A stretch of 22,800 nt of DNA. It comes from a virus. A program made the position numbers and the translations under genes. Of this stretch, positions 2,016 to 22,800 are shown in pieces (the first letter of the stretch is position 1; each line of letters begins with the position of its first letter). Under the pieces are notes generated by a model that worked only from the letters and a program-made list of their open reading frames with translations, was not told the origin of the DNA and ran no database searches. The stretch is taken from the IMG/VR virus record IMGVR_UViG_3300024431_000556, positions 1 to 22,800 of that record; one strand, given 5' to 3'.

Positions 2016-2023
2016 ATATCTCT

Positions 2024-2512
2024 ATGAAAAAGATATTTGTTTTATTGGTAATTTTGGGAATGATGGGCCTCGGCAGCTTCACGGGTTGTCGTAGATATAA
2101 TTTACCGCCAACGAATAATGGTGGCTCATTAAAACCAAGCGAACATAGTTTATTAAATGAAATAAATGCTTATAGATCACGAAAAGGTAGAAGTGCCGTT
2201 CATACAAATGAAACACTTTCAAATGCCGCTCAAAATCATGCAAATTATATGGCCCGCACGGGCAATTTTAGTCACCGTGGCGAAGGACGAAGCACCCCAG
2301 CTATGAGAGCATCAAAGCAGGGATATAAATGGACTGCCATTGCAGAAAATATAGCATATGGGCAGACCAGCGTACCCGAAGTGGTAAGGACGTGGGCAAA
2401 TTCCTGGGGACATAATAAGAATATGTTAGGCGATTTTCAACATATAGGTATTGGTATTGCCACCGACAATAGAGGCAGGATATACTGGGTTAATATGTTT
2501 GGAAATCAGTAA
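2024..2512 (+). CDS. CAP/SCP-domain lipoprotein
   Basis: This protein has a lipoprotein-type signal (MKKIFVLL core; candidate lipobox FTGC with Cys22, where Phe at -3 is atypical) and a complete bacterial CAP (SCP/PR-1, YkwD-like) domain. Family landmarks are LLNEINAYRS near the start, NAAQNHANYMARTGNFSHRG with the conserved His, AENIAYG, W..S.GH..NML, and the final IGIGIA...YWVNMFG strand. CAP proteins are secreted; bacterial members bind lipids or cell-wall components and some are toxins or peptidases, so the biochemical role stays open. I start at 2024, where the signal peptide begins; a longer in-frame reading from 1988 overlaps the protease gene. Being coupled to an exported protease suggests one envelope-directed unit. 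A CAP protein in a T4-like phage is unusual. Confidence 0.82.
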   Translation: MKKIFVLLVILGMMGLGSFTGCRRYNLPPTNNGGSLKPSEHSLLNEINAYRSRKGRSAVHTNETLSNAAQNHANYMARTGNFSHRGEGRSTPAMRASKQGYKWTAIAENIAYGQTSVPEVVRTWANSWGHNKNMLGDFQHIGIGIATDNRGRIYWVNMFGNQ

Positions 2513-2519
2513 TTCTTAT

Positions 2520-3107
2520 TTAAGGAAGCTTTGAACAAGCCTCTCGAAGCTGTTCATAAACTGGCTCGCGTTCCTCAAGACGATAAATCATAAAAGGCGG
2601 GATATAGCTCGCAAGACACTTTAAAAAATTATAAGTCCCCTTTTCTGTAAATAGAATTTTGCCAGTGTCTCGCTCTTTTTTGATTTCACATGGCATATCC
2701 ACCTCATCAAAGAAGCGAGCGATAATTCTGTTGCCGCTCATCCCAAATGACGTTGTGCGAAGACAGACCTTCTTCTTGGTTACAAAGAAACCTTTGTCTA
2801 AAAACCAGACCGCCAATGCCAGAGGATTAAGGTGATTCAAACTATCCATTGTAAGCTTTTTTTGAAAATTATTATATAAATCAGTCCACATCACGTCAGT
2901 TCGTGACCGCCACTTCCTTTTGCCCCTTTCTGCAAAAGTAGGGCTGTTGCGCGAGTATTCTTGCAACATTGCCGCCTTGAAGTTGAGCCATCTGGGATTT
3001 TCTGTATCTGGCATAGTTAAAAAATAATTAACGCCCAGTTTAGGTTTAGATAAATAAGATTTTCCCAGCAATGTGCCCATTACTAACTGTATTTGATCAT
3101 TTTCCAT
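2520..3107 (-). CDS. LAGLIDADG homing endonuclease relative, catalytic acids replaced
   Basis: This is a free-standing LAGLIDADG-type protein. The two signature helices are visible as LVMGTLLGKS near the N-terminus and LALAVWFLDKG in the middle, each followed by the expected beta strands (YLSKPKLGVNYFL; FFVTKKKVCLRTTSF). In active members each helix ends in an acidic residue that binds the metal (LLGDG, FMDDG). Here both positions are Lys, so cleavage is probably lost while DNA binding may remain. I chose ATG 3107, just before the first signature helix; a TTG start at 3176 would add 23 residues but has no ribosome site. It converges on the CAP lipoprotein gene with a 7-base gap. It interrupts no gene and is not an intein. 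Confidence 0.75.
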   Translation of the reverse strand: MENDQIQLVMGTLLGKSYLSKPKLGVNYFLTMPDTENPRWLNFKAAMLQEYSRNSPTFAERGKRKWRSRTDVMWTDLYNNFQKKLTMDSLNHLNPLALAVWFLDKGFFVTKKKVCLRTTSFGMSGNRIIARFFDEVDMPCEIKKERDTGKILFTEKGTYNFLKCLASYIPPFMIYRLEEREPVYEQLREACSKLP

Positions 3108-3197
3108 GCCTGTATATATATGGGCTAAAAGTATTTTAATTTGATAGTCCAATGAATATCTACACTTAGAAGACAAATTTAAATTCGAGGTGATATA

Positions 3198-3527
3198 ATG
3201 GGTGCAACTTCAGTAACAGGTGTAGGTCCAGGTAGTGCAGATGGCCTTAATAAAGGCTCTGAGCATATGACGTTGGGCGTGGGCAATTTAATTGGCCCGA
3301 AAGTAGTTGTTTCCGGTACATCCACGTTAGTAGCAGGCGCAAAAGTCGTTAATTATGGAACCCTTGGTGGTGCCATAGCCGATTATGTGCTGTTTTTGTT
3401 TGACGCCACCGATGGTGGCGCAACAACCGTTCCTAGTTATTCAGCCTTTGATCTTCAAGGGTTTACTATTGCTGGGGAAGGAACTGACGTGATTAACTGG
3501 ATGGTCGTTAAAATCGGCCATGAATAA
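3198..3527 (+). CDS. Small beta-rich, Gly-rich protein, possible virion decoration protein
   Basis: This 109-residue protein is rich in Gly, Val, Thr and Ala, has no Cys, signal peptide or membrane segment, and reads as successive beta strands (KVVVSGTSTLVAG, AIADYVLFLFDA, TDVINWMVVKIG). Size, composition and a beta-rich pattern resemble small head decoration or head-fibre proteins of marine T4-like phages, but I cannot confirm homology. It is monocistronic: a strong GAGGTGAT site precedes the ATG and a perfect 15-bp-stem terminator follows the stop within 30 bases, which fits high expression. Its codons look richer in G and C than those of neighbouring genes, as also seen in the capsid gene. 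A tail or whisker component is an alternative. Confidence 0.6.
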   Translation: MGATSVTGVGPGSADGLNKGSEHMTLGVGNLIGPKVVVSGTSTLVAGAKVVNYGTLGGAIADYVLFLFDATDGGATTVPSYSAFDLQGFTIAGEGTDVINWMVVKIGHE

Positions 3528-3600: not shown

Positions 3601-3920
3601 TAAAATCTTTTGCGAGGCAGCCATCTGTCGCCATATCTGCCTTGTTTCAATAAATTAGAATGAACGCGCTTACGAACGTCATATGGAGACGGGTCTATAA
3701 TATCAGTTCTGCCATTATCTCCAGCCTGTTGCCTTGAATTTCTGATGCGAAACTTCAGTTGTTCTAAATCATCAGTTGGTTCAATGCCGTGCCACTTCGC
3801 CAATAGAAGAAGTTGTTGAGGCGACATATCATCCACTGACACTCCATCAAGTTCTTCTATTTTTGGTGGAAGTGTGGCTAATAAAGCTTCATCTTGTTTT
3901 AACCAATCATTAAACTTCAT
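3600..3920 (-). CDS. Hypothetical protein coupled to the SWIM-like gene
   Basis: This is a 106-residue soluble protein with no domain I recognise. It is mainly helical at the N-terminus (MKFNDWLKQDEALLATLP, then SPQQLLLLAKWHG) and ends in a strongly basic tail (KRVHSNLLKQGRYGDRW, RKRF). The start at 3920 is chosen because its ATG overlaps the TGA of the upstream gene as ATGA, the usual sign of translational coupling; a longer reading from 3974 would bury 54 bases in that gene. Coupling and the nearby head genes make a virion or assembly role plausible, but nothing in the sequence proves it. The stop abuts the bidirectional terminator. Confidence 0.7.
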   Translation of the reverse strand: MKFNDWLKQDEALLATLPPKIEELDGVSVDDMSPQQLLLLAKWHGIEPTDDLEQLKFRIRNSRQQAGDNGRTDIIDPSPYDVRKRVHSNLLKQGRYGDRWLPRKRF

Positions 3921-4447
3921 TGTATGATCCCCGCTTCGGATAAAACACGCATCAATTTTATCAAATGTTTGCACATTCCAGGCATTTCCCTGGGATTTGC
4001 AGAACCTGGATTATGAAGAGCTTGATAAGGAACTCGCACGCGCCCGTACAATGAGCCATCTGTGTGATCAAAATAATTAAACCGCCAGTAGAAATCATTG
4101 CAATTACAGCGAAGCAAAACATCATTTTCTTCAAATGAAAGCTGTTCTAGCAGATGTTCTCGACCAGCATTATCGCGTAAAGGAACAAGCCCTTCAATAT
4201 CATTATCAGGATGATATCGGACATTTTTAAATAATACGGATGGGTTGTATTCCTTGCCATTGGTAATATTGTGGGCTAAACCTTTTACATATAATGTTTT
4301 AACACCTAAATATGGTGTCCAATTCAATTTGTCAATGCGAACTTCATCTATCGCGTGCTGCCGTTTTCGCGTGCGCGGAAAGGCGTCTATAGCTGAATTG
4401 TGTAAAGTATTCAGCGAAGTCTCATTGAGGTATTGGCGGAAATCCAT
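3917..4447 (-). CDS. SWIM-like zinc-finger phage protein
   Basis: This 176-residue protein carries a CxC...CxH arrangement in its C-terminal half: Cys114 and Cys116 in LLRCNCNDF, then Cys159 and His161 in PGMCKHL. Between them lie an aromatic FYWRFNYFD segment and Pro/Asn-rich loops. This matches the SWIM-type zinc-binding pattern, and phage proteins with the same RCxC...PGxCKHL layout recur in marine T4-like genomes, usually without assigned function. The N-terminal half begins MDFRQYLNE, a short helical start. A good AAGGAG site sits 9 bases before the ATG. It heads a two-gene operon and is divergent, with a 28-base gap, from the plus-strand island. Whether it binds DNA, protein or only zinc is not decided by sequence. 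Confidence 0.72.
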   Translation of the reverse strand: MDFRQYLNETSLNTLHNSAIDAFPRTRKRQHAIDEVRIDKLNWTPYLGVKTLYVKGLAHNITNGKEYNPSVLFKNVRYHPDNDIEGLVPLRDNAGREHLLEQLSFEENDVLLRCNCNDFYWRFNYFDHTDGSLYGRVRVPYQALHNPGSANPREMPGMCKHLIKLMRVLSEAGIIQ

Positions 4448-4475
4448 TATAATTGTCTCCTTACTTATTTATCCT

Positions 4476-4742
4476 ATGAGCAATAAAAAAAAATTTGAAT
4501 GGAGGCATCGTAATTTGCCTGGTGGCAAAAAAGAAAATGCACTATTCATTGATAATGAAATATTTGAATGGTCTGTTGATTTCGAGTCCCTTTCGCGGGT
4601 AATGGCAACGGGCGATGAATTTCTAATTAAAGCAACCAAAAAAGACATTGAAGCACACTTTCTTGATAGCCTTTCTGAATTTATCGGCAGAAAGATTTCA
4701 CAGCAAGATATAAACAAAGCTGAAAAAACAGGTTGGATTTAA
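4476..4742 (+). CDS. Conserved small phage protein, function unknown
   Basis: This 88-residue protein begins MSNKKKFEWRHR and has a LIKATKKDIEAHFLDSLSEF core followed by IGRKISQQDINKAEKTGWI. Small proteins with this FEWS...HFLxSxSEFIGRK...TGWI layout recur in T4-like phages of aquatic bacteria, to my recollection without a function. The start at 4476 is the only in-frame ATG that avoids reading back through the divergent SWIM gene. It has no clear ribosome site, since the preceding bases are TATTTATCCT. The next gene starts 1 base after its stop, so the pair is probably one transcript. It opens the plus-strand block that carries the metabolic island. Confidence 0.72.
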   Translation: MSNKKKFEWRHRNLPGGKKENALFIDNEIFEWSVDFESLSRVMATGDEFLIKATKKDIEAHFLDSLSEFIGRKISQQDINKAEKTGWI

Positions 4743-4743
4743 A

Positions 4744-5109
4744 ATGACTAAGAACTGGCCTAATCTTGATCCTCCCAATTGCATACGGGGTTGGATGCCA
4801 GAAATTGAGGAAATAAGCACGGTGCCTGAAATTGACGAAATTAGCATTTGGTCTGATCCTGGCACCAGGGTTCGTTTTGCGCGACCTCATGCTGGCTTTC
4901 AATGTGATGTTGATTTTGCAGCCAAGCATTTAGAATCTAATTCTATTTATATTATTGAGAAAATAGACGTTCATAACTGTCACTCCAACCTATACTTGGA
5001 AGGGTTGCCTGGATGCTTTAACAGTTGTCATTTTGATAATGTTGATCCTGTTGATCACGAAGCGTTGAAACTAAACCAAGAAATATGGAATAGAATGAGA
5101 GGTTGGTAG
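4744..5109 (+). CDS. Hypothetical protein
   Basis: This 121-residue acidic protein is not recognised. Its middle (GTRVRFARPHAGFQCDVDFA, then NSIYIIEKIDVHNCHSNLYL) looks like a small beta barrel, and it ends with a helix (LKLNQEIWNRMRGW). Three Cys residues lie at the end of the strand region but form no clear metal site. It sits between the 88-aa gene (1-base gap) and the lysine aminotransferase gene (1-base gap), so it is surely part of the same operon. The AGAGG ribosome site for the aminotransferase lies inside its last codons, which suggests translational coupling. Confidence 0.7.
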   Translation: MTKNWPNLDPPNCIRGWMPEIEEISTVPEIDEISIWSDPGTRVRFARPHAGFQCDVDFAAKHLESNSIYIIEKIDVHNCHSNLYLEGLPGCFNSCHFDNVDPVDHEALKLNQEIWNRMRGW

Positions 5110-5110
5110 A

Positions 5111-6352
5111 ATGAACAAAGTAATTTCAGTTTTGGACAAACACATACTGGTTGATGGTTTTCACGTCGTAGCAGACTTAGAAAAGTCAAAGGGCAGTTGG
5201 GTGGTGGATGCAGAAACAGGTAAGAAATACCTGGATTGTTACAGTCAGTTTGCATCGCAGGCTTTAGGGTGGAACTGCCCTGCACTTAAAGAACGTATGG
5301 CTGGAGTTTCTAGTGTTCATAAACTCGCAAATTCAGATATGTATTCGCAGCAATATGCCGCCTTTGTAGAAGAGTTTGCCAGTATTACGCCTGATTTTGA
5401 GCATTATTTCTTCATTGAGGGCGGTGCCTTGGGAGTTGAAAATGCTTTAAAAGCTGCATTTGATTGGAAGATCCAGAAGTTGCAGAATGAACATAAACAA
5501 TTCGTCTATGATACGGAAGTCGAATTGGATGTCATTCATCTTTATGGAGCTTTTCATGGTCGTACCGGATATACACTATCATTAACCAATACCGGGGCGT
5601 TAAAAACAAAATGGTTCCCCAAATTTAATTGGACTCGAATAGGTAACCCTGCAATACGATATGAAAGGTTTCATCATATTGAGCATAGGAGTATACAAGA
5701 TGCGGAAAAAGCCCTTGAGAAAGGTAATGTTGCCGCCATCATTTTAGAACCCATTCAAGGAGAAGGCGGTGATAACCATTTTAGAATTGAGTATTTTAAA
5801 AAGTTAAGAGAATTAGCTGATCAATATGAGGCAATGCTTATTTTAGATGAAGTTCAAACTGGCGTGGGCATGACAGGTCGTATGTGGTGTTATGAGCATT
5901 TTGACATCGTGCCAGATATTTTATGTTTTGGAAAGAAATCTCAAGTCTGTGGCTTTGCAGCCACAAATCGTATTGATGATATAGAAGATAATGTATTCAA
6001 TGTTAGTGGCCGCATTAACTCAACTTGGGGCGGTAATTTTATTGATATGATTCGTGCCACTCATATTTTCCAGATAATTAAAGAACAAAATTTAGTTGCA
6101 AATGCTGGTGAGGTAGGTACTTACTTTCTTGAGCAACTGAGGGAATTGGGCCTTGAGAATGCACGCGGGCGAGGGTTAATGCTTGCATTTGATTTGAAAT
6201 CTGAGCAAATACGGGATGAAGTGATGACAAGGCTGAGCGAAAACATGCTAGCACTTAAATGCGGGTCAAGAAGTATTAGATTTCGTCCTCACCTTACTTT
6301 CTCTAAAGAAGATGTGGATACTGCTATAAGTTATATAAAAAAATCAATTTAA
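5111..6352 (+). CDS. lat: L-lysine 6-aminotransferase (class III, PLP-dependent)
   Basis: This is a full-length 413-residue class III aminotransferase. Lat (EC 2.6.1.36) moves the epsilon-amino group of lysine to 2-oxoglutarate, giving glutamate and 2-aminoadipate semialdehyde, which cyclises to piperideine-6-carboxylate. Lat-specific blocks are visible: FFIEGGALGVENALKAAFDW (100-119), HGRTGYTLSLTNT with Arg151, LEPIQGEGGD with Glu213, LDEVQTGVGMTGR with PLP-binding Asp246, FGKKSQVCG with the Schiff-base Lys at 275 or 276, and RINSTWGGN (301-309). Related enzymes such as GABA or ornithine aminotransferase lack the GKKxQVCG and NSTWGGN signatures, so Lat is the better call. It is in the operon with two small upstream genes and precedes the aldolase unit by 66 bases. 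No Lat partner dehydrogenase is in view. Confidence 0.87.
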   Translation: MNKVISVLDKHILVDGFHVVADLEKSKGSWVVDAETGKKYLDCYSQFASQALGWNCPALKERMAGVSSVHKLANSDMYSQQYAAFVEEFASITPDFEHYFFIEGGALGVENALKAAFDWKIQKLQNEHKQFVYDTEVELDVIHLYGAFHGRTGYTLSLTNTGALKTKWFPKFNWTRIGNPAIRYERFHHIEHRSIQDAEKALEKGNVAAIILEPIQGEGGDNHFRIEYFKKLRELADQYEAMLILDEVQTGVGMTGRMWCYEHFDIVPDILCFGKKSQVCGFAATNRIDDIEDNVFNVSGRINSTWGGNFIDMIRATHIFQIIKEQNLVANAGEVGTYFLEQLRELGLENARGRGLMLAFDLKSEQIRDEVMTRLSENMLALKCGSRSIRFRPHLTFSKEDVDTAISYIKKSI

Positions 6353-6418
6353 TTTTGAACCTTTAATAAATTTCAGTGTCTTTCTAATTTAAGATATACT
6401 TTTTATAAGGAATATAAT

Positions 6419-7165
6419 ATGAATGATAAATCTGAATTTGAATTAGACGATAGAGAAGCTGGACTTGAATGGGAACCATTTGGACGTGATATCATAAAGA
6501 GAGCAAAGGAGAATGCAACAACTCCAGCGGGCTGGAAGAAAGAAGGTTGGGTCAAAAATACAGCAGCAAGAGAAATAGCAAGAGATGCACCTGGCAAAGA
6601 GTCGGTGATAGCTGGTGGGGAAGTGTCTGATACACGGAAACCTAAACTTAATGTTCAAGAAGTAAGAGACTGGATTGGGCAAGAGAAATATATCGAAGAT
6701 AAAATGAAACCTATTTTAGACAAAATGTCCAAACTTTCAACTCAAGGAAAAACAGAAGTATTAGATGTAGTTAAGAAATATTGTGGAATCCCCTTCTGGG
6801 AGAAGGCAGGTAATGAAGCAAAGAAAATAGACACCCCAAATGATCCGAAGCACTGGTGCAAGATGCCTGACCTGCAGGCAATGAAGCAGAATTCCTTTGC
6901 TGATAACAGCTTTGAACCGACTGAGCATATTTTGACTTTGGCTGGGTTAAATGAAGAGGAACAATCGTCATACACTCTTACAAAAGCATTGGTTCTTTGT
7001 TATGTAAATGTAGGTGAATTACCAACGTCTAAAATCACGGCTAAATTGGACGAAATAAAAAAAGGTTGGGGAAAAACTTTAATGAAGTCTTTGCCAATAA
7101 CTCACCCGGTAATTTTTATTCCTATAAACGATGATAATACAAGGATAGAAATATTAAATTTATGA
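6419..7165 (+). CDS. Hypothetical protein between lat and the aldolase gene
   Basis: This 248-residue soluble protein has no domain I recognise. The first 75 residues are charged and rich in Lys, Glu and Arg (FELDDREAGLEWEPFGRDI; GWKKEGWVKNTAAREIA) and probably flexible. A helical middle (IGQEKYIEDKMKPILDKMSK) leads to an alpha/beta C-terminal half with YTLTKALVLCYVNVGELPTS and a final HPVIFIPINDD strand. There is no signal peptide and no metal motif. A good AAGGA site precedes the ATG. Its TGA overlaps the aldolase ATG as ATGA, so the two products are made together and may act together. A 66-base gap with an AT-rich stretch separates it from lat and could hold a promoter. Confidence 0.72.
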   Translation: MNDKSEFELDDREAGLEWEPFGRDIIKRAKENATTPAGWKKEGWVKNTAAREIARDAPGKESVIAGGEVSDTRKPKLNVQEVRDWIGQEKYIEDKMKPILDKMSKLSTQGKTEVLDVVKKYCGIPFWEKAGNEAKKIDTPNDPKHWCKMPDLQAMKQNSFADNSFEPTEHILTLAGLNEEEQSSYTLTKALVLCYVNVGELPTSKITAKLDEIKKGWGKTLMKSLPITHPVIFIPINDDNTRIEILNL

Positions 7166-8244
7166 ATGAAGCAAATAAAACGGCTTTAGAATTAGTTGCA
7201 AATAATAAAGGAATCTTGGCAGCAGACGAAAGCGAACCAACAATGAAAAAGAGGTTTAATGCTGTTGGTGTAGAGTCTACAGAAAAAAATAGATTGGATT
7301 ATCGTTCTGCACTATTTTCTACGCCTGATCTTGAAAATTATATTAGTGGCATAATCCTGTTTGATGAAACTGCTAGACAAACGATTGAAGGAACTCCAAT
7401 TCCTGAATTTCTTTCGTCTAAAGGAATTATCCCAGGGATTAAAGTAGATCAAGGCGCTAAACCAATGGCAGGACATCACCCAAGCCAAAAAATAACAGCA
7501 GGCTTGGATTCACTACGGGAACGGTTGTCTGAGTATAAAGAGATGGGACTTCGTTTTACAAAGTGGCGAGCCGTCTTTACGGTCAATCCTCATTATGCTA
7601 CTGTCTCCGCTAATGCTTGGGCATTGGCGGAATTTGCCACACGGTCTCAGGAAGCAGGTTTAACCCCTATTGTTGAACCAGAAGTTCTTATGGATGGTAC
7701 ACATAGTTTGGTTGAAGCTTATGAAACAATAGATTGGGTTTTGCGAGAGGTTTTTTATGCCATCAAATCAAGCCGGACAGCCCTGAATAGCATGATTCTA
7801 AAAGTAAACATGGTGATGCCCGGTTATGATGCGAAGGAGCAAGTAGATCCTGATGTAGTTGCGAGCAATACACTAATCGCACTGCGAAGAAATGTGCCAG
7901 TTGCAGTTCCTGGCATTGCCTTTCTTTCGGGCGGCCAATCTGATGATAATGCTGTTGAACATCTAAAGCTTATGAATAAAATGGCAGGCCGTTATCCTCC
8001 TTGGGCGTTAAGCTTTTCTTATGGAAGAGCTTTGCAAAGAGACGCATTGAAAATCTTTTCAGTTGGTGGAGTTGGTGTGCCTGGCAAGTATTTGTCTCGC
8101 CTTCAAGATAAATTACTAGAACGCGCAAAAGCGTGTCATCAAGCCTGTAAAGCCAAGAACCCCTCCTTAACAGATGTTTTGACTAAATTAAACGAAGAAA
8201 CAGAATCCCCTAAATCCCCATTGGCAGAATTAGATGACTTTTAA
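7162..8244 (+). CDS. Class I fructose-bisphosphate aldolase
   Basis: This 360-residue protein is a full-length class I (Schiff-base) aldolase, which cleaves fructose 1,6-bisphosphate to dihydroxyacetone phosphate and glyceraldehyde 3-phosphate in glycolysis and runs in reverse in gluconeogenesis. The active-site set is complete: Asp22 in GILAADES, Lys134 in FTKWRAVF, Glu172 and Glu174 in IVEPEVL, the Schiff-base Lys214 in LKVNMVMPG, and the phosphate-binding LSGGQSDD and SFSYGRALQ segments. The protein ends in LDDF rather than the C-terminal Tyr of animal enzymes. The start overlaps the upstream stop by 4 bases and the end overlaps the next start by 11 bases, so it sits in a coupled set of four genes. 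Intact active-site residues argue for a working enzyme, not a structural relic. Confidence 0.93.
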   Translation: MNEANKTALELVANNKGILAADESEPTMKKRFNAVGVESTEKNRLDYRSALFSTPDLENYISGIILFDETARQTIEGTPIPEFLSSKGIIPGIKVDQGAKPMAGHHPSQKITAGLDSLRERLSEYKEMGLRFTKWRAVFTVNPHYATVSANAWALAEFATRSQEAGLTPIVEPEVLMDGTHSLVEAYETIDWVLREVFYAIKSSRTALNSMILKVNMVMPGYDAKEQVDPDVVASNTLIALRRNVPVAVPGIAFLSGGQSDDNAVEHLKLMNKMAGRYPPWALSFSYGRALQRDALKIFSVGGVGVPGKYLSRLQDKLLERAKACHQACKAKNPSLTDVLTKLNEETESPKSPLAELDDF

Positions 8245-8488
8245 AAAATTACGCTCCATGTTCAGAAAGAAAGAGCCAGAAGTAACGGCTCAAGGACTCT
8301 TTGACATTTTTGGCATGTTCGATGCTGAAACTGTAGATAAAATCAAAGCAATCCTCGCTTCTATAGATCCAGATAAAATTAAACTTATCATGGATTCCGT
8401 GGCCGTAGATGAAAATGGTTGGATTCGCATACAGGTTGATCTAGGCATTAAAAAAGTTGCATTAAGAAGTGATCTTTCTGATAAATGA
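8234..8488 (+). CDS. Small hypothetical protein overlapping the aldolase gene
   Basis: This 84-residue protein is of unknown function. It has a basic start (MTFKKLRSMFRKKEPE), a helical core (LFDIFGMFDAETVDKIKAIL) and a C-terminal strand pair around NGWIRIQVDLGIKKVAL. There are no Cys or membrane segments. Its ATG lies inside the aldolase gene (11-base overlap) and its TGA overlaps the next ATG as ATGA, so it is tightly coupled on both sides. This argues that it is real and made in step with the aldolase and the pyruvyl transferase-like protein. Small helical phage proteins of this kind are often assembly factors or inhibitors, but no specific role can be claimed. Confidence 0.68.
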   Translation: MTFKKLRSMFRKKEPEVTAQGLFDIFGMFDAETVDKIKAILASIDPDKIKLIMDSVAVDENGWIRIQVDLGIKKVALRSDLSDK

Positions 8489-9510
8489 AAATAGTTCACT
8501 TTGACACAGACTCTACAAACAATTGTGGAGATCACGTCTTGTCATGGTGTTTGCGAGCAGTTTTTGGTCAGTACGTTCCAGATATTGTCTGGAAAATATT
8601 TCATGTCCAAACCGAATGTAATGATGAAATCATTACGGAAATAAACCAAGCGGATCTTGTGATTGTTGGCGGCGGGGGGTTATTTTTAAGAGATACCGGA
8701 GCAAACTCTCATTCCGGTTGGCAATGGCCCATACCTCTTCATCTCCTGCATAAAATAAAAACGCCCCTCGTCTTGTTCGGTGTAGGATACAATCGGTTCC
8801 GAAATCAGCCAGACTTTGAGCCTATCTTTACGGAACATATCAATGCAGTTGTTGAAAAGGCTAAATTTGTCGGTCTCAGAAACCATGGCAGCATTAGTGC
8901 GATTCAATCTTACCTCAAGCCAGAGTTAAAAAGCAAAATTGATTTTCAACCCTGTCCTTCCGTTCATTTAGATAAATTAACCGACATTAAACCAGTCTGG
9001 CTAACAAACAATACTTTGGCGATAAACCCTGGTTGCGATAGACCTAAAATGAGATTTAATGGCAAGGAAGTCTTTGTAGACCTTGATAAATTAGGCCATT
9101 ATTGTGCCCAATTAGGATGGGATGTACAAGTCATTCATAATACCCCTATAGAAAAAGATTTGAAATTAAAATTTCCCACCCTTGCCCTTTATGGCAAGCA
9201 ATTCAATGAAATAATAAGTGGCTATAAGCAAGCAGCAATTACTGTGGGAATGAAGGGCCATGGCCAGTTAATCCCATTTGGATTGGGAAACGCCATCATT
9301 TCATTGGTGTCTCACAATAAACTTCAATGGTTCTTAGATGACGTAGGGGAAAGTTGGGGCGTAGATGTTTCGGAAAACATTTTTGAGGGATTGAGGGCCA
9401 GGTTTGAATTGTTGATTCAAGATCGCGAGATAATTCATAACAAAATTCAAGCAGCCAAAGCCCGCTTCTGGGAACAAACGGAAAAGAATGTAGAGTTTAT
9501 CCTATCTTGA
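8485..9510 (+). CDS. Polysaccharide pyruvyl transferase-like protein
   Basis: This 341-residue protein matches the polysaccharide pyruvyl transferase family, which adds ketal-linked pyruvate from phosphoenolpyruvate to sugars of exopolysaccharides, cell-wall glycans or LPS. Visible landmarks are the N-terminal strand and turn (DTDSTNNCGDHVLSWCLR), a Gly-rich loop (LVIVGGGGLFLRD, 58-70), LVLFGVGYN, the central KFVGLRNHGSI, and the C-terminal MKGHGQLIPFGLGNAIISL block with the conserved His and downstream Lys. Related families use the same fold for other glycan modifications, so the exact reaction is uncertain. It closes the four-gene coupled set; its last 14 bases overlap the convergent peptidase gene. 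A role in altering host surface glycans or decorating virion proteins fits the context. Confidence 0.8.
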   Translation: MKIVHFDTDSTNNCGDHVLSWCLRAVFGQYVPDIVWKIFHVQTECNDEIITEINQADLVIVGGGGLFLRDTGANSHSGWQWPIPLHLLHKIKTPLVLFGVGYNRFRNQPDFEPIFTEHINAVVEKAKFVGLRNHGSISAIQSYLKPELKSKIDFQPCPSVHLDKLTDIKPVWLTNNTLAINPGCDRPKMRFNGKEVFVDLDKLGHYCAQLGWDVQVIHNTPIEKDLKLKFPTLALYGKQFNEIISGYKQAAITVGMKGHGQLIPFGLGNAIISLVSHNKLQWFLDDVGESWGVDVSENIFEGLRARFELLIQDREIIHNKIQAAKARFWEQTEKNVEFILS

Positions 9511-10417
9511 TTAGCGAAGCCTCTTTGATGAAATACAGCATGGCCTTATAGGCTTTTCTAATTTCTTCTGGAATAGCACTCTCAGAAGGCTTTTTAGACC
9601 GGCCAAATTCCCAGGTTATGCCAAAAGCACCATTGTTGTGATAAAAGTCTTTTGATGTTCCTATGTTGTTGGATTTGCGAGGATTGTTGTATCCGGCCAA
9701 TCTAGTCATTGCCCCACAAATTTTGAGGTAGTCAGCTTCATTTTGGCCTCTGGGATATATCAACACGCGCCCGTATGCGTGTCCACATGCAGCCGCTTGG
9801 AATCCGTGTTGTAAGAAAAATGCTCTGAGAGCCTGTACAGGGGGTACAGAACGCCTAGTAGGGTTTCTAGGGTGTGGGAAGTCTCTATTGGGATCAACGC
9901 CGTCTACGTGCCTTCTATGCGCTTTATAGCTATCAGGTGATACGATAGGTATAAAATAAACGTCCCTCATGCTTAAATCTACCTTATCGTAATTGGCCAG
10001 CATATTGCTCATGCAACCTAAAACAGTTGCGGTGGCTATTTTCTCATCTCCGTGAATGCACGCCGTTATTAGAACCTTGGGTTTAGGGGCCGATAAACGA
10101 GGATTGTGCAGCCTGAAATACCAAATATCCTCACCCTGACTGCTCTTGCCATAGGTGCCCATTTCAGTAATTTCTGGGGCCTCTTGATGCCATTGTTTCA
10201 TTAAATTAACCACTCCAGCGTAATCCAAATATCGCATGGGAGCTTTTGTTGTGGGAAGCTTTAATGATAGTGGCTCGTTAGCAATAACGAGCGGTACATA
10301 AATTGGCGGATAGTGAACTGCTGGTTGAGGGGGAGTCTTACGCGAAAGGAAGATGGCCAGCCCTATAAGAAAGATAAATCCAAGCAATACAAAGACCAAG
10401 TGTCCCCCATTTTTCAT
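9497..10417 (-). CDS. Membrane-anchored M14 zinc carboxypeptidase
   Basis: This 306-residue peptidase has one N-terminal hydrophobic helix (7-24, LVFVLLGFIFLIGLAIFL), then a Pro-rich linker (29-45) and an M14 domain. The zinc ligands and catalytic residues are in order: His122 and Glu125 in CIHGDE, the substrate-binding PNRDF (Arg178), His213 in CGHAYG, and the general base Glu270 in TWEFGR. M14 enzymes remove C-terminal residues from peptides; one branch cleaves gamma-D-Glu-meso-DAP links in peptidoglycan, which would suit an envelope enzyme. The helix lacks a clear cleavage site, so it may be an anchor with the domain in the periplasm. A strong AGGAGG site precedes the ATG. Its end overlaps the pyruvyl transferase-like gene by 14 bases. 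Confidence 0.88.
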   Translation of the reverse strand: MKNGGHLVFVLLGFIFLIGLAIFLSRKTPPQPAVHYPPIYVPLVIANEPLSLKLPTTKAPMRYLDYAGVVNLMKQWHQEAPEITEMGTYGKSSQGEDIWYFRLHNPRLSAPKPKVLITACIHGDEKIATATVLGCMSNMLANYDKVDLSMRDVYFIPIVSPDSYKAHRRHVDGVDPNRDFPHPRNPTRRSVPPVQALRAFFLQHGFQAAACGHAYGRVLIYPRGQNEADYLKICGAMTRLAGYNNPRKSNNIGTSKDFYHNNGAFGITWEFGRSKKPSESAIPEEIRKAYKAMLYFIKEASLIKIG

Positions 10418-10710: not shown

Positions 10711-11226
10711 TTAAAACAAAGCTGAATTAAAGTCGGTTATACGAGTGCCAGAATGTGGATTATAACCATAATCCAAGTTTAGTTTGTTTATATATGTCAA
10801 TAATGGTACATATGTCAATAATGGGGTGGGGAATGGGGCGGTCTCAAGGTCTTTAATGATGTCTTTGCAACTTATAACTTCACTGAAAATAGTTTTTGGA
10901 AGAGGTAAAATGGATATCCTATGTCGTCTCGACCGACAGTGTGCCTTTTGAAACAATCGAACTGATCCATAATATTTACGGTAATGACGATCAGTATTTT
11001 CATGCCATTTCTTAGTTTCTTCGTTAAAATTGTGTGAAGAATCTACTCCCCATACTGCATCTTTTTCCAACAACTGGCAGTTCCCTATTCTATGTGAACC
11101 ACAAACACAAGCCTCATCTATGGGAAAATGAAACCATTCTATATCTTTCAATAACTCCTCAAAATTTTTGATCTTGCCATCAATAATCTCAATTACCTTT
11201 TTATTGTCTAACCATACATTTTTCAC
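10711..11226 (-). CDS. Cys/His-containing hypothetical protein, last gene of the capsid-paralog operon
   Basis: This 171-residue protein is not recognised. It starts from GTG, which overlaps the upstream TGA as GTGA. The first residues, MKNVWLD, match the openings of the two capsid paralogs and the sigma-like protein. It then has a helical segment (11-30), a possible metal site (Cys40, Cys42, Cys50 with His45), an Arg/His-rich stretch (HYRKYYGSVR, CRSRRHR at 97-103), and a region with a tandem repeat (LLTYVPLLTYI). The rest shows no similarity to the capsid fold that I can see. Its operon position suggests a function tied to the capsid paralogs, such as a chaperone or accessory protein, but that is inference. 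Confidence 0.7.
   Translation of the reverse strand: MKNVWLDNKKVIEIIDGKIKNFEELLKDIEWFHFPIDEACVCGSHRIGNCQLLEKDAVWGVDSSHNFNEETKKWHENTDRHYRKYYGSVRLFQKAHCRSRRHRISILPLPKTIFSEVISCKDIIKDLETAPFPTPLLTYVPLLTYINKLNLDYGYNPHSGTRITDFNSALF
10792..10827 (-). repeat. Two-copy 18-bp tandem repeat inside a gene
   Basis: A 15-base block (ATATGTCAATAATGG on the plus strand) occurs at 10792-10806 and again at 10810-10824, a period of 18. It encodes LLTYVP-LLTYIN in the Cys/His-containing protein. The repeat keeps the frame and looks like a recent in-gene duplication. Confidence 0.85.
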
Positions 11227-12299
11227 TTTTCTTCCTTTTCAGGTAAATTATCAAAAACAATGCGACCATAGAAATTAGAACCCTCTCTCAATAGTTTTCT
11301 GCCATAACGACGTATCACACCATGTCGAGGACAGAAATTACCAAGATCAATATCGGGCATAACTGGTGTTGCTGCCATTTCAATATAAGGCATAAAGAAA
11401 TATCCTGCCTCTAAATTATTGCCCTTATATCCTATCACCATTTCATTGCGGGGGAAGAGGGGGTCGGTATAAACCTTGATGTTGTCAATCTTGCCTGCCT
11501 CAATTGGTGAAACATAGACTTTGTTCCACATTTGACTGTGCTCTGCTTTTGGGAATAATTCCTTTGCAAGTTTGCCACTTGTGACGACCCAATTGCCATC
11601 CCTTTTTCCTTCATTTTCTTCTTTATAATAATCAGAAACATTCTGACCTACTTTCTTGCTCATATCTTTAATTGCAATTCGCAATAATTGAACGCAATCA
11701 TTAAGAGTGGAAAAATCTTTTGCATCCCACCTTTCCAAATGACCGGCAATATGCCTCAGATCAGTAAAAACCCCTCTGTCCCATTCTGTTGCATATTCCT
11801 GTCCCCATAAATGCACTAATTCCTGTTCGGGACTAATTCCATTAACGGTTTTTAAATCTTGCATTGTCTCGAAATTAGGGCCGAATCTCATTTTGCTTGT
11901 CTTGCAAATATAGTTTTCACTTTTTAAGGTGTGGCCTGGTCCTCGAAAGTCAACTACTCCCGTGGCTGGCACACCAGTCGGGTGCAATGTCGGCTGAACA
12001 GACACAATTTGGGGCGTTAATGCAAGCTGATATACTTTGGCAATAACTGGTATGGCGTATTTTATAACTCCTGTATGAAAGCTATTTTTGTTCTTGTCTT
12101 TGTCACAAATATCAATCCACGACCTTTCAGTTTCCAAAGCTATTGTCAGCGCTACTTTTGTTGGGCCATCTTCTATTTTGTCAAATAGCCCGCTGATTTT
12201 TTGCCACTTATCTTTAACCTTTTCATACTCTTCAATAACGTGTTTGTTGAAATCCATAATTCCCCGTTCAGTTGCTGACATAAGCCATTTATTTTTCAT
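11223..12299 (-). CDS. gp23-like minor capsid or vertex protein paralog 2
   Basis: This 358-residue protein is a clear paralog of the major capsid protein encoded at 16321. Shared blocks are KIEDGPTKVALTIALETE (41-58), IVSVQP...PTG (98-109), ETMQDLKTV (144-152), GQEYATEWDR (166-175), DPLFPRNEMVIGYKGN (279-294), AGYFFMPY (298-305), and FCPRHG..RRYGRKLLREGSNFYGR (322-346). About 150 residues between the first strand and MQDL are absent compared with the major protein, as if an inserted domain had been lost or never gained. The EENEGKRDGNWVV segment (227-239) is shared with paralog 1 but not the major protein. T4 uses a gp23 relative, gp24, for the vertices, so a vertex role is plausible. It overlaps the genes on both sides by 11 and 4 bases. 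Confidence 0.85.
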   Translation of the reverse strand: MKNKWLMSATERGIMDFNKHVIEEYEKVKDKWQKISGLFDKIEDGPTKVALTIALETERSWIDICDKDKNKNSFHTGVIKYAIPVIAKVYQLALTPQIVSVQPTLHPTGVPATGVVDFRGPGHTLKSENYICKTSKMRFGPNFETMQDLKTVNGISPEQELVHLWGQEYATEWDRGVFTDLRHIAGHLERWDAKDFSTLNDCVQLLRIAIKDMSKKVGQNVSDYYKEENEGKRDGNWVVTSGKLAKELFPKAEHSQMWNKVYVSPIEAGKIDNIKVYTDPLFPRNEMVIGYKGNNLEAGYFFMPYIEMAATPVMPDIDLGNFCPRHGVIRRYGRKLLREGSNFYGRIVFDNLPEKEEK

Positions 12300-13302
12300 T
12301 TAAATTTTCCTCAAAATCTATATGACCATAGAAACCGGCACCATTCTTTATTAACTTTTTGCCACGACGACGCCATGCTCGCTGTTGAGGGCCAGGTAAT
12401 TGACCCTTTCGTATTGGTATAATTTCTGCATAAGGCATGAAGAAATATCCTGCCTCCAAAATGCTGCCCTTGTAACCCATTGTTATTTCATTGTGAGGAA
12501 AATCACAGTCGCTATCGCCGCCGCAATAGATAGTAATTCCATCAATTTCACCTCGTTTGTAAGGGCAGACATCGGGACTAGTGTATTCACCTCTGGGAAA
12601 TATTTTATCGGCCAAATCACTATTCATAACAATCCAATTGCCATCTCTCTTTCCTTCGTTCTCTTCACCGTAATAATTGGAAACGTAGTCGCCTATGTAC
12701 CGGCTCATTTCCCAGATGCTATATACTAAACCCTTATACTGCTCCCCGCGAGGCCAATGCTTGCGACCAAAATTCCATTTGAATTTACAATGTTCTTTCA
12801 AGTTTACAAGAACTTCTCTGTCCCATTCAATTGCAAACTCTTGTGCTAAACAATCTGTTATTACTGTTTTAGAATCAATGTTAAAAACTGACTTTAAATC
12901 CTGCATACTATCAAAATTAAAAACCATTTTTAAATTTCTTGTGCTTGTTATACAAGGTTCAACTTTGTTTTCATGGCCTGGTCCTCGATAAAAAATATTA
13001 TCACATGGTCCTTTTGCGGCTTGAACTGATACAAGGTCAGGTGTCATGGCGATTCCATAAGCCTTTGCAATTATGGGCATAACACATTCTTTAAACACAA
13101 GACTGAAGTCTTGACGGATTTTGCCAGATATTCTGTTATCAATAAGAGCTTTTTCGTTCTCTAATACGATGGCCAATGCAGCTTTTCTTGATTCTTCTAT
13201 CTTAAAATGATTGATAAATTCAGCCATTACTTTACTATAGTCTATATCGTTGGGGGGTATCCCTCGTTTTTCCATTGCTAATTCAAGCCATATATTTTTC
13301 AT
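12289..13302 (-). CDS. gp23-like minor capsid or vertex protein paralog 1
   Basis: This 337-residue protein has the same HK97/gp23-type core as its neighbour and the major capsid protein: KIEESRKAALAIVLENE (34-50), LVSVQ (90-94), FDSMQDLKSV (130-139), LAQEFAIEWDREVL (152-165), NEITMGYKGS (271-280), AGYFFMPYAE (284-293), and RRRGKKLIKNGAGFYG (311-326). It lacks the same large internal segment and also the FCPRxG motif found in the other two, replaced by a Gln/Arg-rich stretch. It has extra Cys residues (73, 100, 117, 151, 172, 246, 260, 266). The start MKNIWLELA follows a GGAG site. It lies 9 bases after the MerR-like gene, so both are on one transcript. A vertex, portal-proximal or alternative-capsid role is inferred from the fold. 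Confidence 0.83.
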   Translation of the reverse strand: MKNIWLELAMEKRGIPPNDIDYSKVMAEFINHFKIEESRKAALAIVLENEKALIDNRISGKIRQDFSLVFKECVMPIIAKAYGIAMTPDLVSVQAAKGPCDNIFYRGPGHENKVEPCITSTRNLKMVFNFDSMQDLKSVFNIDSKTVITDCLAQEFAIEWDREVLVNLKEHCKFKWNFGRKHWPRGEQYKGLVYSIWEMSRYIGDYVSNYYGEENEGKRDGNWIVMNSDLADKIFPRGEYTSPDVCPYKRGEIDGITIYCGGDSDCDFPHNEITMGYKGSILEAGYFFMPYAEIIPIRKGQLPGPQQRAWRRRGKKLIKNGAGFYGHIDFEENLNEK

Positions 13303-16320: not shown

Positions 16321-17781
16321 TCAAATCACAAAATTAGCGATGCTAACACGGGCGTAGAACTTGGCACCTTCACGGAGCAACTTTTTGCCGTATCGAGTCA
16401 GAATACCCTTCCGAGGGCAGAAGCTCTCAGGATCAAGTACAACTGGAGTCTGTGTTAGCGGAACGTATGGGCAGTAGAAATATCCACTATCCATATAGCT
16501 GTCGCCCTTATAACCCATCAAAAGTTGTCCCGTTGGGAACAATGGGTCTTTGTATAATCGCCATCTGTTATTAACAGTACCGACATATTGAATGCCCAAG
16601 CTGGAGGTGAATGTCTCGGACGGAGCCGGGGCAAAACCAGCGGTAGCGGTTTCAAATATAGATGCAACTTCAGGAGAGGTTACAAGCCAATTACAACCAC
16701 CACGAAGGGTCTTACGGTGAACGACGTTTGAAACTTCTACGATTTTGACGTAAAGAGCTTCATACTTTTCTTTAATCGTGTCACCAAGTGCGGTATTAAA
16801 GTCCCAGGTTGCAACCGTACCAGCGTTGTTACGCAAGTCGGTCAAAACTTCGCGGTCAATTTCAAGGTTGATTTCTTGCGCGAGAACGGCAGTCAATTCA
16901 GCCTCTGCATCTAGGTTATGTTGTGAACGAAGGTCTTGCTGTGCTTCGTATGACCAAACGGCCTTTAATTTACGAGTCTTAGCAGCGATTTCTTCGCTTT
17001 CGATAACCAGGTTAATTTCTGGGAGGTCTTGGTTACATTCCATGTTGTATTCATAAGAAGCAACCATACTATTATCCCCAGGATCACCAGAAGTGTTCCA
17101 AGTTAGGTTGACTTCGCCAGAATTAACATCAAGTGAACCGCCTGCGACTAAAATTGCAGGAGCACCAATCGTTGTGAACGCAAAAATACCAGAAGTATCA
17201 ACGACAAATGTTTGAACAGCCGTTGAACCGTCAAAGATAGTACCTGTCAAAGTACCGGGTAGTACCGGAGTGTGCTCAAGAGGAGCATAAACAGATACAT
17301 GACCAGAAGCTGCACCACCTGGATCTGTACTAGATGTTTCGTTTTGTACAAACTGATGAGAATAGAAAATATCTAAGTTCCCATCACCAGAGGCCAACTG
17401 TTGTAGTGTGTTTACATCATCGCCAGGGAATCCAGCGTTATTATCAGCACCACGAGTTGCACCCTTGTTGCTGCTATAACGGAACCGAAGGTAATAAACT
17501 AAACCAGTCGGGCCTAATAGCGGCTGAACACTTACGAGCTTATTTGCAATAAGTTGCGGATAAATTCGACGAACTAGAGGAATAGAAATTCTCTTGAACT
17601 GAGCAACATCACCTGTGTCAGTGCTCACTTCATTCATAAGACGCTGATTTTCTAAAAGAACGGCGGTTGTAGAGCGGATATAACGATCCTCAATATTCTC
17701 CAACAATCCAGTCTTCTTCCAGCGCTTCTCCAATTCCCTAGCTTCGTTTAGGAATTTGGCATTGCCAGTAATAGTTTCCAT
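16321..17781 (-). CDS. 23: Major capsid protein (T4 gp23-like)
   Basis: This 486-residue HK97-fold protein is the main shell subunit of the head. The N-terminal helical region (LLENIEDRYIRSTTAVLLEN, 27-46) matches that of T4 gp23 and related phages, followed by KLVSVQPLLGPTG (81-93). Residues about 105-255 hold a large Gly/Ser/Thr-rich beta segment, probably an inserted domain that forms the capsomer surface. Core blocks then follow: YEAQQDLRSQHNLDAEAEL, LAQEINLEIDREVL, GCNWLVTSPEVAS, DPLFPTGQLLMGYKGD, SGYFYCPYVPL, and FCPRKG..TRYGKKLLREGAKFYAR. Processing by the gp21 protease near residue 50 is expected from T4, but I see no clear LxE site there. A GAGG site supports the ATG. It is the last gene of the head operon and ends at a terminator. 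Confidence 0.96.
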   Translation of the reverse strand: METITGNAKFLNEARELEKRWKKTGLLENIEDRYIRSTTAVLLENQRLMNEVSTDTGDVAQFKRISIPLVRRIYPQLIANKLVSVQPLLGPTGLVYYLRFRYSSNKGATRGADNNAGFPGDDVNTLQQLASGDGNLDIFYSHQFVQNETSSTDPGGAASGHVSVYAPLEHTPVLPGTLTGTIFDGSTAVQTFVVDTSGIFAFTTIGAPAILVAGGSLDVNSGEVNLTWNTSGDPGDNSMVASYEYNMECNQDLPEINLVIESEEIAAKTRKLKAVWSYEAQQDLRSQHNLDAEAELTAVLAQEINLEIDREVLTDLRNNAGTVATWDFNTALGDTIKEKYEALYVKIVEVSNVVHRKTLRGGCNWLVTSPEVASIFETATAGFAPAPSETFTSSLGIQYVGTVNNRWRLYKDPLFPTGQLLMGYKGDSYMDSGYFYCPYVPLTQTPVVLDPESFCPRKGILTRYGKKLLREGAKFYARVSIANFVI

Positions 17782-21897: not shown

Positions 21898-22800
21898 TTA
21901 AACTTCGCTATAATCAACATCTTCCACATCTTGCTCGGATTCATAATCCTGAATTTCAAGATCATATTTCTTAATATCATCATCCGTAGGATCAGAAATT
22001 GCGGCTGCGTTGCCTTTTTGCGTTAATTGCGGACTTGGTTCCTGTTCTTGAGGTGGTCCACCTAATGCTGCTTGGGCCTCTCCTCCTTCCTGTCCAGGCT
22101 GACCTGGCTGCTGTTCTCCACCTGGCTGCTGTTCTCCACCTGGGGGTTGTTCTCCACCTGGCGGCTGTTGACCAAGCATTGGGTTGGGTCCACCAGGCTC
22201 GGTTCCCATTTCCATTTCGCCCTGTCCTGGCATACCAATGCCCACTAATTGCGGATTAGAGGCCATTATTTGCAGTTTAAGGTCTTCTAGTTTTTGGATT
22301 TTAATTCTAGCCAGCTTTTCAACGGCATCTTCATGTGAATATTTCATCCAATCAATATAAATGTCATAATCAGCCATTAACTGCGATCCCTTCAAGTTAC
22401 TGGCGTTACTAAGTCGGTTAGTGATGACTTCTGCACGGCTTAATTCTCTCCAATCAGAGGGCGGGGTCATTTTTATTTCCAAGTCCTCATACATTTCATC
22501 TGGAAAACCTCTGAGTTTGAGGTGTCTGCGGGCAAGTTCATACATTCCGTCTTCAAGTGGTGCTTGTAATCTTTCGATTGTTCGGGCGAATTTAACATCT
22601 TGTGCAGATAAAGTTATGCGTGTCGCACCTGGGTCTTCTTGGTCCAGATAATTTTTAGGAAAATGCAATGCTGTATAAAGTTTATTTCTAAAATAAACGG
22701 CATCATCTATTTCGCCTAAATTCTGAGCACCAGGCAGCGTTTCAACGCGAGTGTTGGTATTTGGTCTGATTGGAACCCAATAGTCCTCATCAGCAGGCAT
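21898..22800 (-). CDS. 20: Portal protein (T4 gp20-like), C-terminal part, cut by the window edge
   Basis: At least 300 residues of the portal vertex protein are present; the gene continues past the window end, so the Met at the edge is probably internal. The visible part has the gp20 signature ADEDYWVPIRPNTNTRVETL, LPGAQNLGEIDDAVYFRNKL and DVKFARTIERLQ, which in T4 form part of the wing and stem of the dodecameric channel for DNA packaging. Past residue 188 (from the window edge) the sequence is a long Gly/Pro/Gln/Glu-rich tail with PPGGEQ repeats, then an acidic end (DYESEQDVEDVDYSEV). Such a tail is absent from T4 gp20. A terminator follows the stop, so the downstream core gene must be transcribed from its own promoter. 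Confidence 0.94.
   Translation of the reverse strand: MPADEDYWVPIRPNTNTRVETLPGAQNLGEIDDAVYFRNKLYTALHFPKNYLDQEDPGATRITLSAQDVKFARTIERLQAPLEDGMYELARRHLKLRGFPDEMYEDLEIKMTPPSDWRELSRAEVITNRLSNASNLKGSQLMADYDIYIDWMKYSHEDAVEKLARIKIQKLEDLKLQIMASNPQLVGIGMPGQGEMEMGTEPGGPNPMLGQQPPGGEQPPGGEQQPGGEQQPGQPGQEGGEAQAALGGPPQEQEPSPQLTQKGNAAAISDPTDDDIKKYDLEIQDYESEQDVEDVDYSEV
22108..22161 (-). repeat. Three-copy 18-bp tandem repeat in the portal tail
   Basis: The unit CTGCTGTTCTCCACCTGG (plus strand) is exact at 22108-22125 and 22126-22143, and the third copy at 22144-22161 has a few changes; a decayed fourth follows. It encodes the PGGEQQ repeats of the portal tail and keeps frame, so its copy number can vary without breaking the gene. 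Confidence 0.9.

What the first reader, a model, noticed from the sequence alone, without database searches (positions are those of the whole stretch)
5111..9510. Lysine aminotransferase, class I aldolase and pyruvyl transferase-like genes form a phage metabolic island
Seen: five contiguous plus-strand genes, all intact, the last four linked by 4-11 bp overlaps, set between minus-strand phage genes. Known: Lat makes 2-aminoadipate semialdehyde from lysine; class I aldolase works in central carbon metabolism; pyruvyl transferases modify glycans. Inference: the island may redirect host carbon and amino-group flow, or supply a glycan precursor for host-surface or virion modification. I know of no described pathway that joins these three activities, so the 248-aa and 84-aa partners may be its missing parts.
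Basis: partly seen in the sequence, partly recalled or inferred. Interest (0 to 1): 0.78.

Follow-up and report, generated by a model that had tools for sequence, protein, structure and literature searches.

The report
Huge-phage lysine aminotransferase gene cassette
A fragment of a giant T4-like phage carries intact-looking genes for a lysine-consuming enzyme and a sugar-splitting enzyme; the lysine enzyme turns out to be a widespread gene of such phages that repeatedly sits beside other amino-acid-breaking enzymes, which suggests that these viruses mine lysine for nitrogen and carbon during infection.

Summary
Five intact plus-strand ORFs lie at 5111-9510: lysine 6-aminotransferase (Lat), 248 aa, class I FBP aldolase, 84 aa and a pyruvyl-transferase-like protein. 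The last four overlap by 4, 11 and 4 bp. Two more plus-strand genes (4476-5109) abut Lat, so the run has seven genes. The window is a 22.8-kb viral contig with T4-like head genes, syntenic with the 595-kb huge phage LR756511. It is not a chimera.

The single five-gene pathway is not supported. No relative has this order, and the 248-, 84- and 121-aa proteins have no detectable relatives. Lat is the conserved core. I found 57 viral Lat loci, separated from all sampled bacterial Lats on an unrooted tree. Glutamate dehydrogenase lies within about 3 kb of Lat in 14, all at the window's locus type. In 17 marine loci an aldehyde dehydrogenase and an arginine dihydrolase-like gene lie beside it. Aldolase lies within 10 kb of Lat in 7 marine loci.

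Most likely Lat moves lysine nitrogen to glutamate and carbon to aminoadipate in the infected cell. Aldolase acts in central carbon metabolism and the pyruvyl-transferase-like protein on glycans; both are lineage-specific cargo. No paper on phage-encoded Lat was found in the open-access library searched.

The parts
4425..4453 (+). sigma-70-like promoter match TTGAGG-17-TATAAT just upstream of the first gene (weak)
   Evidence: 10 of 12 matches, but the number of such matches in the region equals the shuffled expectation; position fits, function unproven
4476..4742 (+). 88-aa ORF (called g10 here), conserved directly upstream of Lat in huge-phage relatives
   Evidence: relatives in about 30 viral loci and in LR756511 (43% id)
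4744..5109 (+). 121-aa ORF, no relatives found
5111..6352 (+). L-lysine 6-aminotransferase (Lat), PLP class III aminotransferase
   Evidence: 63% id to LR756511 Lat; M. tuberculosis K300, E243, R170, R422, N328, T330 equivalents conserved
6419..7165 (+). 248-aa protein of unknown family, no relatives
   Evidence: AF2 model uninformative (pLDDT 36)
7162..8244 (+). class I fructose-1,6-bisphosphate aldolase
   Evidence: Schiff-base Lys (K214) and D22, K94, K134, R136, E172, E174, R289 invariant in 8 phage aldolases
8234..8488 (+). 84-aa protein, no relatives
8485..9510 (+). polysaccharide pyruvyl transferase-like protein (PF04230, GT-B-like fold)
2520..3176 (-). LAGLIDADG endonuclease-family ORF; conserved left neighbour that anchors synteny of the Lat locus
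3198..3527 (+). 109-aa conserved ORF (g7) of the same syntenic block
3917..4447 (-). 176-aa conserved ORF (g9) of the same syntenic block
16321..17781 (-). T4 gp23-like major capsid protein, shows viral origin (78% id to LR756511)
21898..22800 (-). T4 gp20-like portal protein (cut by contig end)

Best explanation
The segment is an auxiliary metabolic cassette at a conserved Lat locus of a huge T4-like phage. Its core, Lat, is an old phage-lineage lysine 6-aminotransferase. During infection it takes lysine (from host protein or pools), transfers the epsilon-amino group to 2-oxoglutarate and yields glutamate plus 2-aminoadipate semialdehyde (piperideine-6-carboxylate). In related phages the next steps are encoded too: an aldehyde dehydrogenase that could oxidise the semialdehyde to 2-aminoadipate, and a glutamate dehydrogenase that could regenerate 2-oxoglutarate with release of ammonia and NAD(P)H. 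The net effect would be to mobilise nitrogen, carbon and reducing power from amino acids for virion production. In this lineage FBP aldolase, the 248- and 84-aa proteins and a pyruvyl-transferase-like enzyme have been added behind Lat in one transcription unit: aldolase for triose/hexose flux, the pyruvyl-transferase-like enzyme for a glycan. They share transcription, not one pathway. Shown: gene content, conserved catalytic residues, viral context, recurrent Lat-GDH, Lat-ALDH and Lat-aldolase linkage. Inferred: substrate, flux direction, co-transcription, and that the unsequenced rest of this genome holds ALDH or GDH.
For: Lat: best solved match is M. tuberculosis lysine epsilon-aminotransferase (381.9 bits, full length; next family 163 bits) with all its key residues conserved. 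Viral context and synteny with LR756511. 57 viral Lat loci, separated from 46 bacterial or reference Lats by one branch (support 99/80). GDH within about 1.4-3.3 kb of Lat in 14 loci; in 42 capsid-clade contigs GDH is in 4 of 6 with Lat and 0 of 36 without. ALDH-arginine dihydrolase-like-Lat operon in marine phages; an ALDH 55% identical to theirs in LR756511. In bacteria an ALDH is also beside Lat in 35 of 80 loci. Aldolase within 10 kb of Lat in 7 marine loci, and in L302 beside ALDH, SDH and OCD.
Against: Neither ALDH nor GDH is in the window itself (22.8 kb of a genome probably several hundred kb), and LR756511 has ALDH but no GDH. Phage Lat scores 1.1 bits below the curated TIGR03251 cut-off, and the phage ALDHs fit no curated substrate-specific family. 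Several long viral Lat contigs have neither partner. The window aldolase is not firmly joined to the marine phage aldolases (long branch), so the two Lat-aldolase pairings may be separate events. No expression or activity data exist.
Confidence: 0.6

Rival explanations
1. Glycan-precursor route: lysine nitrogen passes through glutamate/glutamine, and aldolase-derived fructose 6-phosphate feeds amino-sugar synthesis; the pyruvyl-transferase-like protein finishes a surface or virion glycan.
For: Two marine Lat/aldolase loci also carry a glucosamine-6-phosphate synthase-like gene (L066, L071), 15 carry a UDP-glucose dehydrogenase-like gene beside Lat, and viral relatives of the pyruvyl-transferase-like gene lie in clusters that I read as sialic-acid/glycosyltransferase genes (L322).
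Against: None of these sugar genes is in the window. Glucosamine-6-phosphate synthase was found in only two distinct viral genomes, where the proteins share 78% identity. The pyruvyl-transferase relatives lack Lat and aldolase. No nucleotide-sugar gene lies in the seven-gene run.
Confidence: 0.15
2. Lat serves to make the reactive semialdehyde / piperideine-6-carboxylate (or pipecolate) itself, as osmolyte, stress signal or trap for host pyridoxal phosphate, rather than to feed nitrogen.
For: Many viral Lat contigs, including two long ones (G007, 341 kb; G036, 254 kb), show neither ALDH nor GDH. Marine loci have ornithine-cyclodeaminase/ketimine-reductase-family and saccharopine-dehydrogenase-family genes. 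Pyridoxal phosphate trapping by this intermediate in ALDH7A1 deficiency is established knowledge.
Against: Where partners exist they are ones expected to remove the semialdehyde (ALDH) or recycle glutamate (GDH). There is no reductase in the window.
Confidence: 0.12
3. Unlinked cargo: the genes are independently acquired morons that merely share an operon; each acts alone or not at all.
For: Aldolase, the 248- and 84-aa proteins and the pyruvyl-transferase-like gene are absent from every relative of the Lat locus of the window's synteny type. Bacterial aldolases reach 54% identity to the window's, marine phage ones 43-48%.
Against: Lat recurs with amino-acid enzymes far beyond chance and is retained over a deep phage clade; Lat-aldolase linkage recurs in marine phages.
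Confidence: 0.12
4. Chimeric assembly or host contamination.
For: Enzymes are of cellular type.
Against: Left flank (LAGLIDADG, g7, g9, g10, Lat) and right flank (capsid genes) are both syntenic with independent viral contigs. The window Lat is closer to many phage Lats (up to 63%) than to any bacterial Lat (52% at best). GC of the run (0.35-0.41 per gene) is within the range of the minus-strand genes (0.33-0.45).
Confidence: 0.01

Closest known systems
Bacterial/actinobacterial L-lysine 6-aminotransferase (Lat; M. tuberculosis Rv3290c, PDB 2CIN) and the Lat-aminoadipate pathway
   Same: Full-length homology, conserved PLP lysine, glutamate switch and substrate arginines; in bacteria an ALDH gene is often adjacent (35 of 80 loci), as in marine phages
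   Different: Phage Lats lie apart from all sampled bacterial ones; encoded in huge T4-like phages; recurrent neighbours also include glutamate dehydrogenase and an arginine dihydrolase-like enzyme
Cyanophage class I FBP aldolase (Prochlorococcus phage P-TIM68 and relatives)
   Same: Same enzyme family carried by a T4-like phage as an auxiliary metabolic gene
   Different: Only 43-44% identical, in a separate clade of 57 viral rows in the tree; in P-TIM68 it sits among replication genes without Lat
Huge phages of Al-Shayeb et al. 2020 (PMC7162821); LR756511.1, 595 kb, is my attribution to that set
   Same: Capsid 78%, Lat 63% identical and same order LAGLIDADG - g7 - g10 - Lat - capsid block
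   Different: LR756511 has no aldolase; its only pyruvyl-transferase-like gene is of another subfamily about 340 kb away; ALDH lies about 183 kb from Lat. The paper's main text mentions neither lysine, aminotransferase, aldolase nor glutamate dehydrogenase
Polysaccharide pyruvyl transferase family (CsaB, ExoV, Pvg1 type)
   Same: PF04230 above cut-off, GT-B-like predicted fold, conserved GH motif
   Different: Far below the CsaB cut-off (27.6 vs 213 bits); motif reads K-G-H in place of the R-x-H expected from CsaB/Pvg1; pyruvylation not demonstrated
Phage-encoded amino-acid/polyamine enzymes (PMC9992855)
   Same: Auxiliary amino-acid metabolism in phages, with biochemical proof there
   Different: Concerns decarboxylases and polyamines; my term search of the text showed no lysine aminotransferase

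Membership tests
L-lysine 6-aminotransferase (TIGR03251 equivalog) | Score at or above curated cut-off 520.8 bits | tested here: not met
   519.7 bits over the full length; other phage Lats 472-511. Short by 1.1 bits, next best family 214 bits
L-lysine 6-aminotransferase (TIGR03251 equivalog) | PLP lysine K300, glutamate switch E243, substrate arginines R170/R422, N328, T330 (M. tuberculosis numbering) | tested here: met
   alignment to 2CIN: window K275, E218, R151, R390, N303, T305
L-lysine 6-aminotransferase (TIGR03251 equivalog) | Lysine epsilon-transamination activity | not testable with these tools
   needs enzyme assay
Class I FBP aldolase (NF033379 / PF00274) | Score above curated cut-off | tested here: met
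   398.3 vs 250 bits; 347 vs 22.2 bits
Class I FBP aldolase (NF033379 / PF00274) | Schiff-base lysine and catalytic Asp/Lys/Glu/Arg set | tested here: met
   D22, K94, K134, R136, E172, E174, K214, R289 aligned and invariant
Polysaccharide pyruvyl transferase (PF04230) | Score above Pfam gathering cut-off | tested here: met
   52.4 vs 25.3 bits
CsaB S-layer pyruvyl transferase (TIGR03609) | Score above equivalog cut-off 213 | tested here: not met
   27.6 bits
Polysaccharide pyruvyl transferase (PF04230) | R-x-H active-site motif | tested here: inconclusive
   K-G-H in window, R-G-H in Sinorhizobium homologues and L323, A-G-H in L320/L322
Viral auxiliary metabolic gene | Flanked on both sides by viral genes, intact ORF | tested here: met
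Viral auxiliary metabolic gene | Expressed and metabolically active during infection | not testable with these tools
   no transcriptome or host known
Conserved five-gene 'metabolic island' | Same gene order in other phages | tested here: not met
   no other locus has Lat-248-aldolase-84-pyruvyl transferase

The most novel reading that the evidence does not exclude
Huge T4-like phages and a group of marine phages carry a phage-owned amino-nitrogen module that dismantles host lysine (and arginine) into glutamate, ammonia, 2-aminoadipate and reducing power during infection: Lat with glutamate dehydrogenase, a semialdehyde dehydrogenase, an arginine dihydrolase-like enzyme and at times FBP aldolase. 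Lysine catabolism would be a previously undescribed target of viral metabolic reprogramming.
Probability: 0.5. Interest if true: 0.75.

Novelty: new variant of a known kind. Interest (0 to 1): 0.58.

Why it matters
Auxiliary metabolic genes of phages are known mostly from photosynthesis, pentose phosphate, nucleotide, sulfur and phosphate metabolism. A lysine aminotransferase that is separate from bacterial ones on the tree, is kept in dozens of huge or marine phage contigs, and has glutamate dehydrogenase or aldehyde dehydrogenase beside it, points to amino-acid nitrogen as something large phages actively mine. It gives a testable set of enzymes (Lat, GDH, ALDH, arginine dihydrolase-like) and a clear prediction: lysine-derived nitrogen should appear in virion nucleotides and protein.

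Tried and rejected
Single five-gene pathway: rejected, order and small partners not found elsewhere. Chimera: rejected by two-sided synteny. Single-sequence viral scans with aldolase, pyruvyl transferase and the 248-aa protein gave nothing; alignment-based scans worked for the first two. Megablast of the whole window against phages: no match. AF2 of the 248-aa protein alone was uninformative (pLDDT 36). AF2 of the pyruvyl-transferase-like protein was moderate (pLDDT 66); its PDB matches are generic GT-B enzymes such as UDP-GlcNAc 2-epimerases and TagF, which supports the fold, not the reaction. Considered and dropped: the pyruvyl-transferase-like gene of LR756511 as an orthologue, because it has the R-L-H motif, lies far away and gave no tblastn match to the window protein. 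T4 late-promoter motif TATAAATA: two hits, as expected by chance. No tRNAs. Literature searches for phage Lat returned nothing relevant, within a library that lacks most subscription journals and preprints.
Full report
1. Observation. Two further plus-strand ORFs (4476-4742, 88 aa; 4744-5109, 121 aa) join head-to-tail to Lat, so the presumptive transcription unit begins near 4476. A 10-of-12 sigma-70-like match ends at 4453; such matches are no more frequent than in shuffles, so this is only suggestive. On the right the run ends tail-to-tail with a minus-strand M14 carboxypeptidase gene.

2. What carries it. The window is an IMG/VR virus record with a T4-like head module on the minus strand: portal gp20, prohead protease gp21, major capsid gp23 plus two gp23 paralogues. 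Its nearest relative in the phage collection is the 595-kb uncultured huge phage LR756511.1 (capsid 78% identity, Lat 63%). Protein synteny covers both sides: LAGLIDADG ORF, g7, g10 and Lat on the left and capsid to portal on the right. That left block recurs beside Lat in about 25 other viral contigs. A chimeric assembly is therefore very unlikely.

3. Identity of the enzymes. Lat: best solved match M. tuberculosis Lat 2CIN, 381.9 bits, against 163 bits for the next family. Residues equivalent to K300, E243, R170, R422, N328 and T330 are all present (the functional roles are from established knowledge of that enzyme). The curated Lat model misses its cut-off by 1.1 bits, so strict membership is not met, while function as a Lat remains the best reading. 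Aldolase: above the class I cut-off, catalytic set intact. Pyruvyl-transferase-like protein: Pfam family met, CsaB not met. Its closest homologues are on Sinorhizobium plasmids (37% and 34%). Viral relatives (26-28%) sit with genes that by my reading of the translations encode a NeuA-like cytidylyltransferase, a NeuB-like synthase and glycosyltransferases, in phages with UvsX-like and replicative-helicase-like genes. The predicted fold is GT-B-like. The 248-, 84- and 121-aa proteins matched no family and no other locus.

4. Lat elsewhere in viruses. An alignment-based scan found 57 viral Lat loci (roughly nine are near-identical repeats). Records behind these loci reach 533 kb. In a maximum-likelihood tree the 58 phage rows and 46 bacterial or reference rows are separated by one branch (support 99/80). 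The tree is unrooted and its bootstrap not fully settled. The best bacterial identity to the window Lat is 52%.

5. Recurrent partners. (a) Glutamate dehydrogenase lies 1.4-3.3 kb downstream of Lat in 14 loci, all of the window's synteny type. In 42 capsid-clade contigs GDH occurs in 4 of 6 with Lat and in none of 36 without; p = 0.00013, or 0.008 if only contigs of at least 60 kb count. (b) In 17 marine loci Lat is in a tight run VOC - ALDH - arginine dihydrolase-like - Lat - UDP-glucose dehydrogenase-like, sometimes with saccharopine-dehydrogenase- and ornithine-cyclodeaminase-family genes. 'Marine' is my reading of the IMG sample series and was not checked with a tool. LR756511 holds an ALDH 55% identical to theirs, 183 kb from its Lat; two GDH-bearing contigs also hold an ALDH. 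In bacteria, too, an ALDH is adjacent to Lat in 35 of 80 loci. Neither phage nor bacterial ALDH reaches a curated substrate-specific cut-off, so 2-aminoadipate semialdehyde as substrate is inferred from context. (c) Aldolase lies within 10 kb of Lat in 7 marine loci. L302 has aldolase with ALDH, VOC, SDH and OCD but no Lat within the stretch read. Only 81 aldolase relatives were found by pattern in all viral contigs, so a chance pairing with 57 Lat contigs is expected about 0.002 to 0.02 times (naive, ignores shared ancestry). The tree puts the window aldolase beside the marine ones, but on a long branch flagged as unreliable.

6. How it most likely works. Lat takes lysine nitrogen to glutamate and releases 2-aminoadipate semialdehyde; ALDH and GDH in relatives complete the route to 2-aminoadipate and recycle 2-oxoglutarate. 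Aldolase can supply triose or hexose phosphates; the pyruvyl-transferase-like enzyme is likely a glycan modifier. I see no chemistry that joins Lat, aldolase and pyruvyl transferase in one pathway, and the comparative data show them as separable. The flux direction, the substrates and the presence of ALDH or GDH in this very genome are inferences.

7. Novelty. Phage auxiliary metabolism is a known kind and class I aldolase in phages is known (P-TIM68). I found no report of phage Lat, nor of Lat linked to GDH, ALDH or arginine dihydrolase-like genes, in the open-access library, which is not exhaustive. I rate it a new variant of a known kind.

Noticed in passing
window 14652-16214 (-): 520-aa protein combining a Mom (adenine-modification) domain, a weak TnsA-like nuclease segment and an endonuclease VII-like C-terminus; its Mom region matches the C-terminal part of phage HNH/homing endonuclease families. 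It sits between the major capsid gene and the capsid paralogues.
   Followed up: no
window 11223-12299, 12289-13302, 16321-17781 (-): Three gp23-family capsid paralogues in one head module, two overlapping by 11 bp.
   Followed up: no
window 2520-3176 (-); relatives in about 35 loci: A LAGLIDADG endonuclease-family ORF keeps a fixed place next to g7/g9/g10/Lat over a deep huge-phage clade, unusual for a mobile homing endonuclease; it may be domesticated.
   Followed up: partly
window 1314-2512 (+) and 9497-10417 (-): Trypsin-like protease, CAP-domain protein and M14 zinc carboxypeptidase, apparently secreted or membrane-linked, flank the Lat region; trypsin-like genes recur near Lat in many relatives.
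   Followed up: partly
window 700-1176 (-); L006 10091-10582: DUF2784-like membrane-protein gene shared with marine phages, where it directly follows the Lat operon.
   Followed up: partly
L066, L071 (marine Lat loci): Glucosamine-6-phosphate synthase-like and 3-hydroxyacyl-CoA dehydrogenase genes lie with aldolase and Lat in the same phage stretch.
   Followed up: partly
L302 12369-13469 (-) and 8687-9952 (+): L-sulfolactate/malate dehydrogenase-family gene and an actin/ParM-like gene in a viral contig with aldolase, ALDH, SDH and OCD genes.
   Followed up: no
L002 3059-4975 and 11733-13424; also L005: The bacterial-type DnaE polymerase gene is split in two, and the whole Lat/ALDH/arginine dihydrolase-like cassette lies between the two halves.
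   Followed up: no
L011 31560-33209 (-) (LR756511 326.6-328.2 kb): The huge phage encodes a thiamine-diphosphate decarboxylase-like enzyme, a translation initiation factor IF-3-like protein and an IscA-like protein near its aldehyde dehydrogenase (read from translations only).
   Followed up: no
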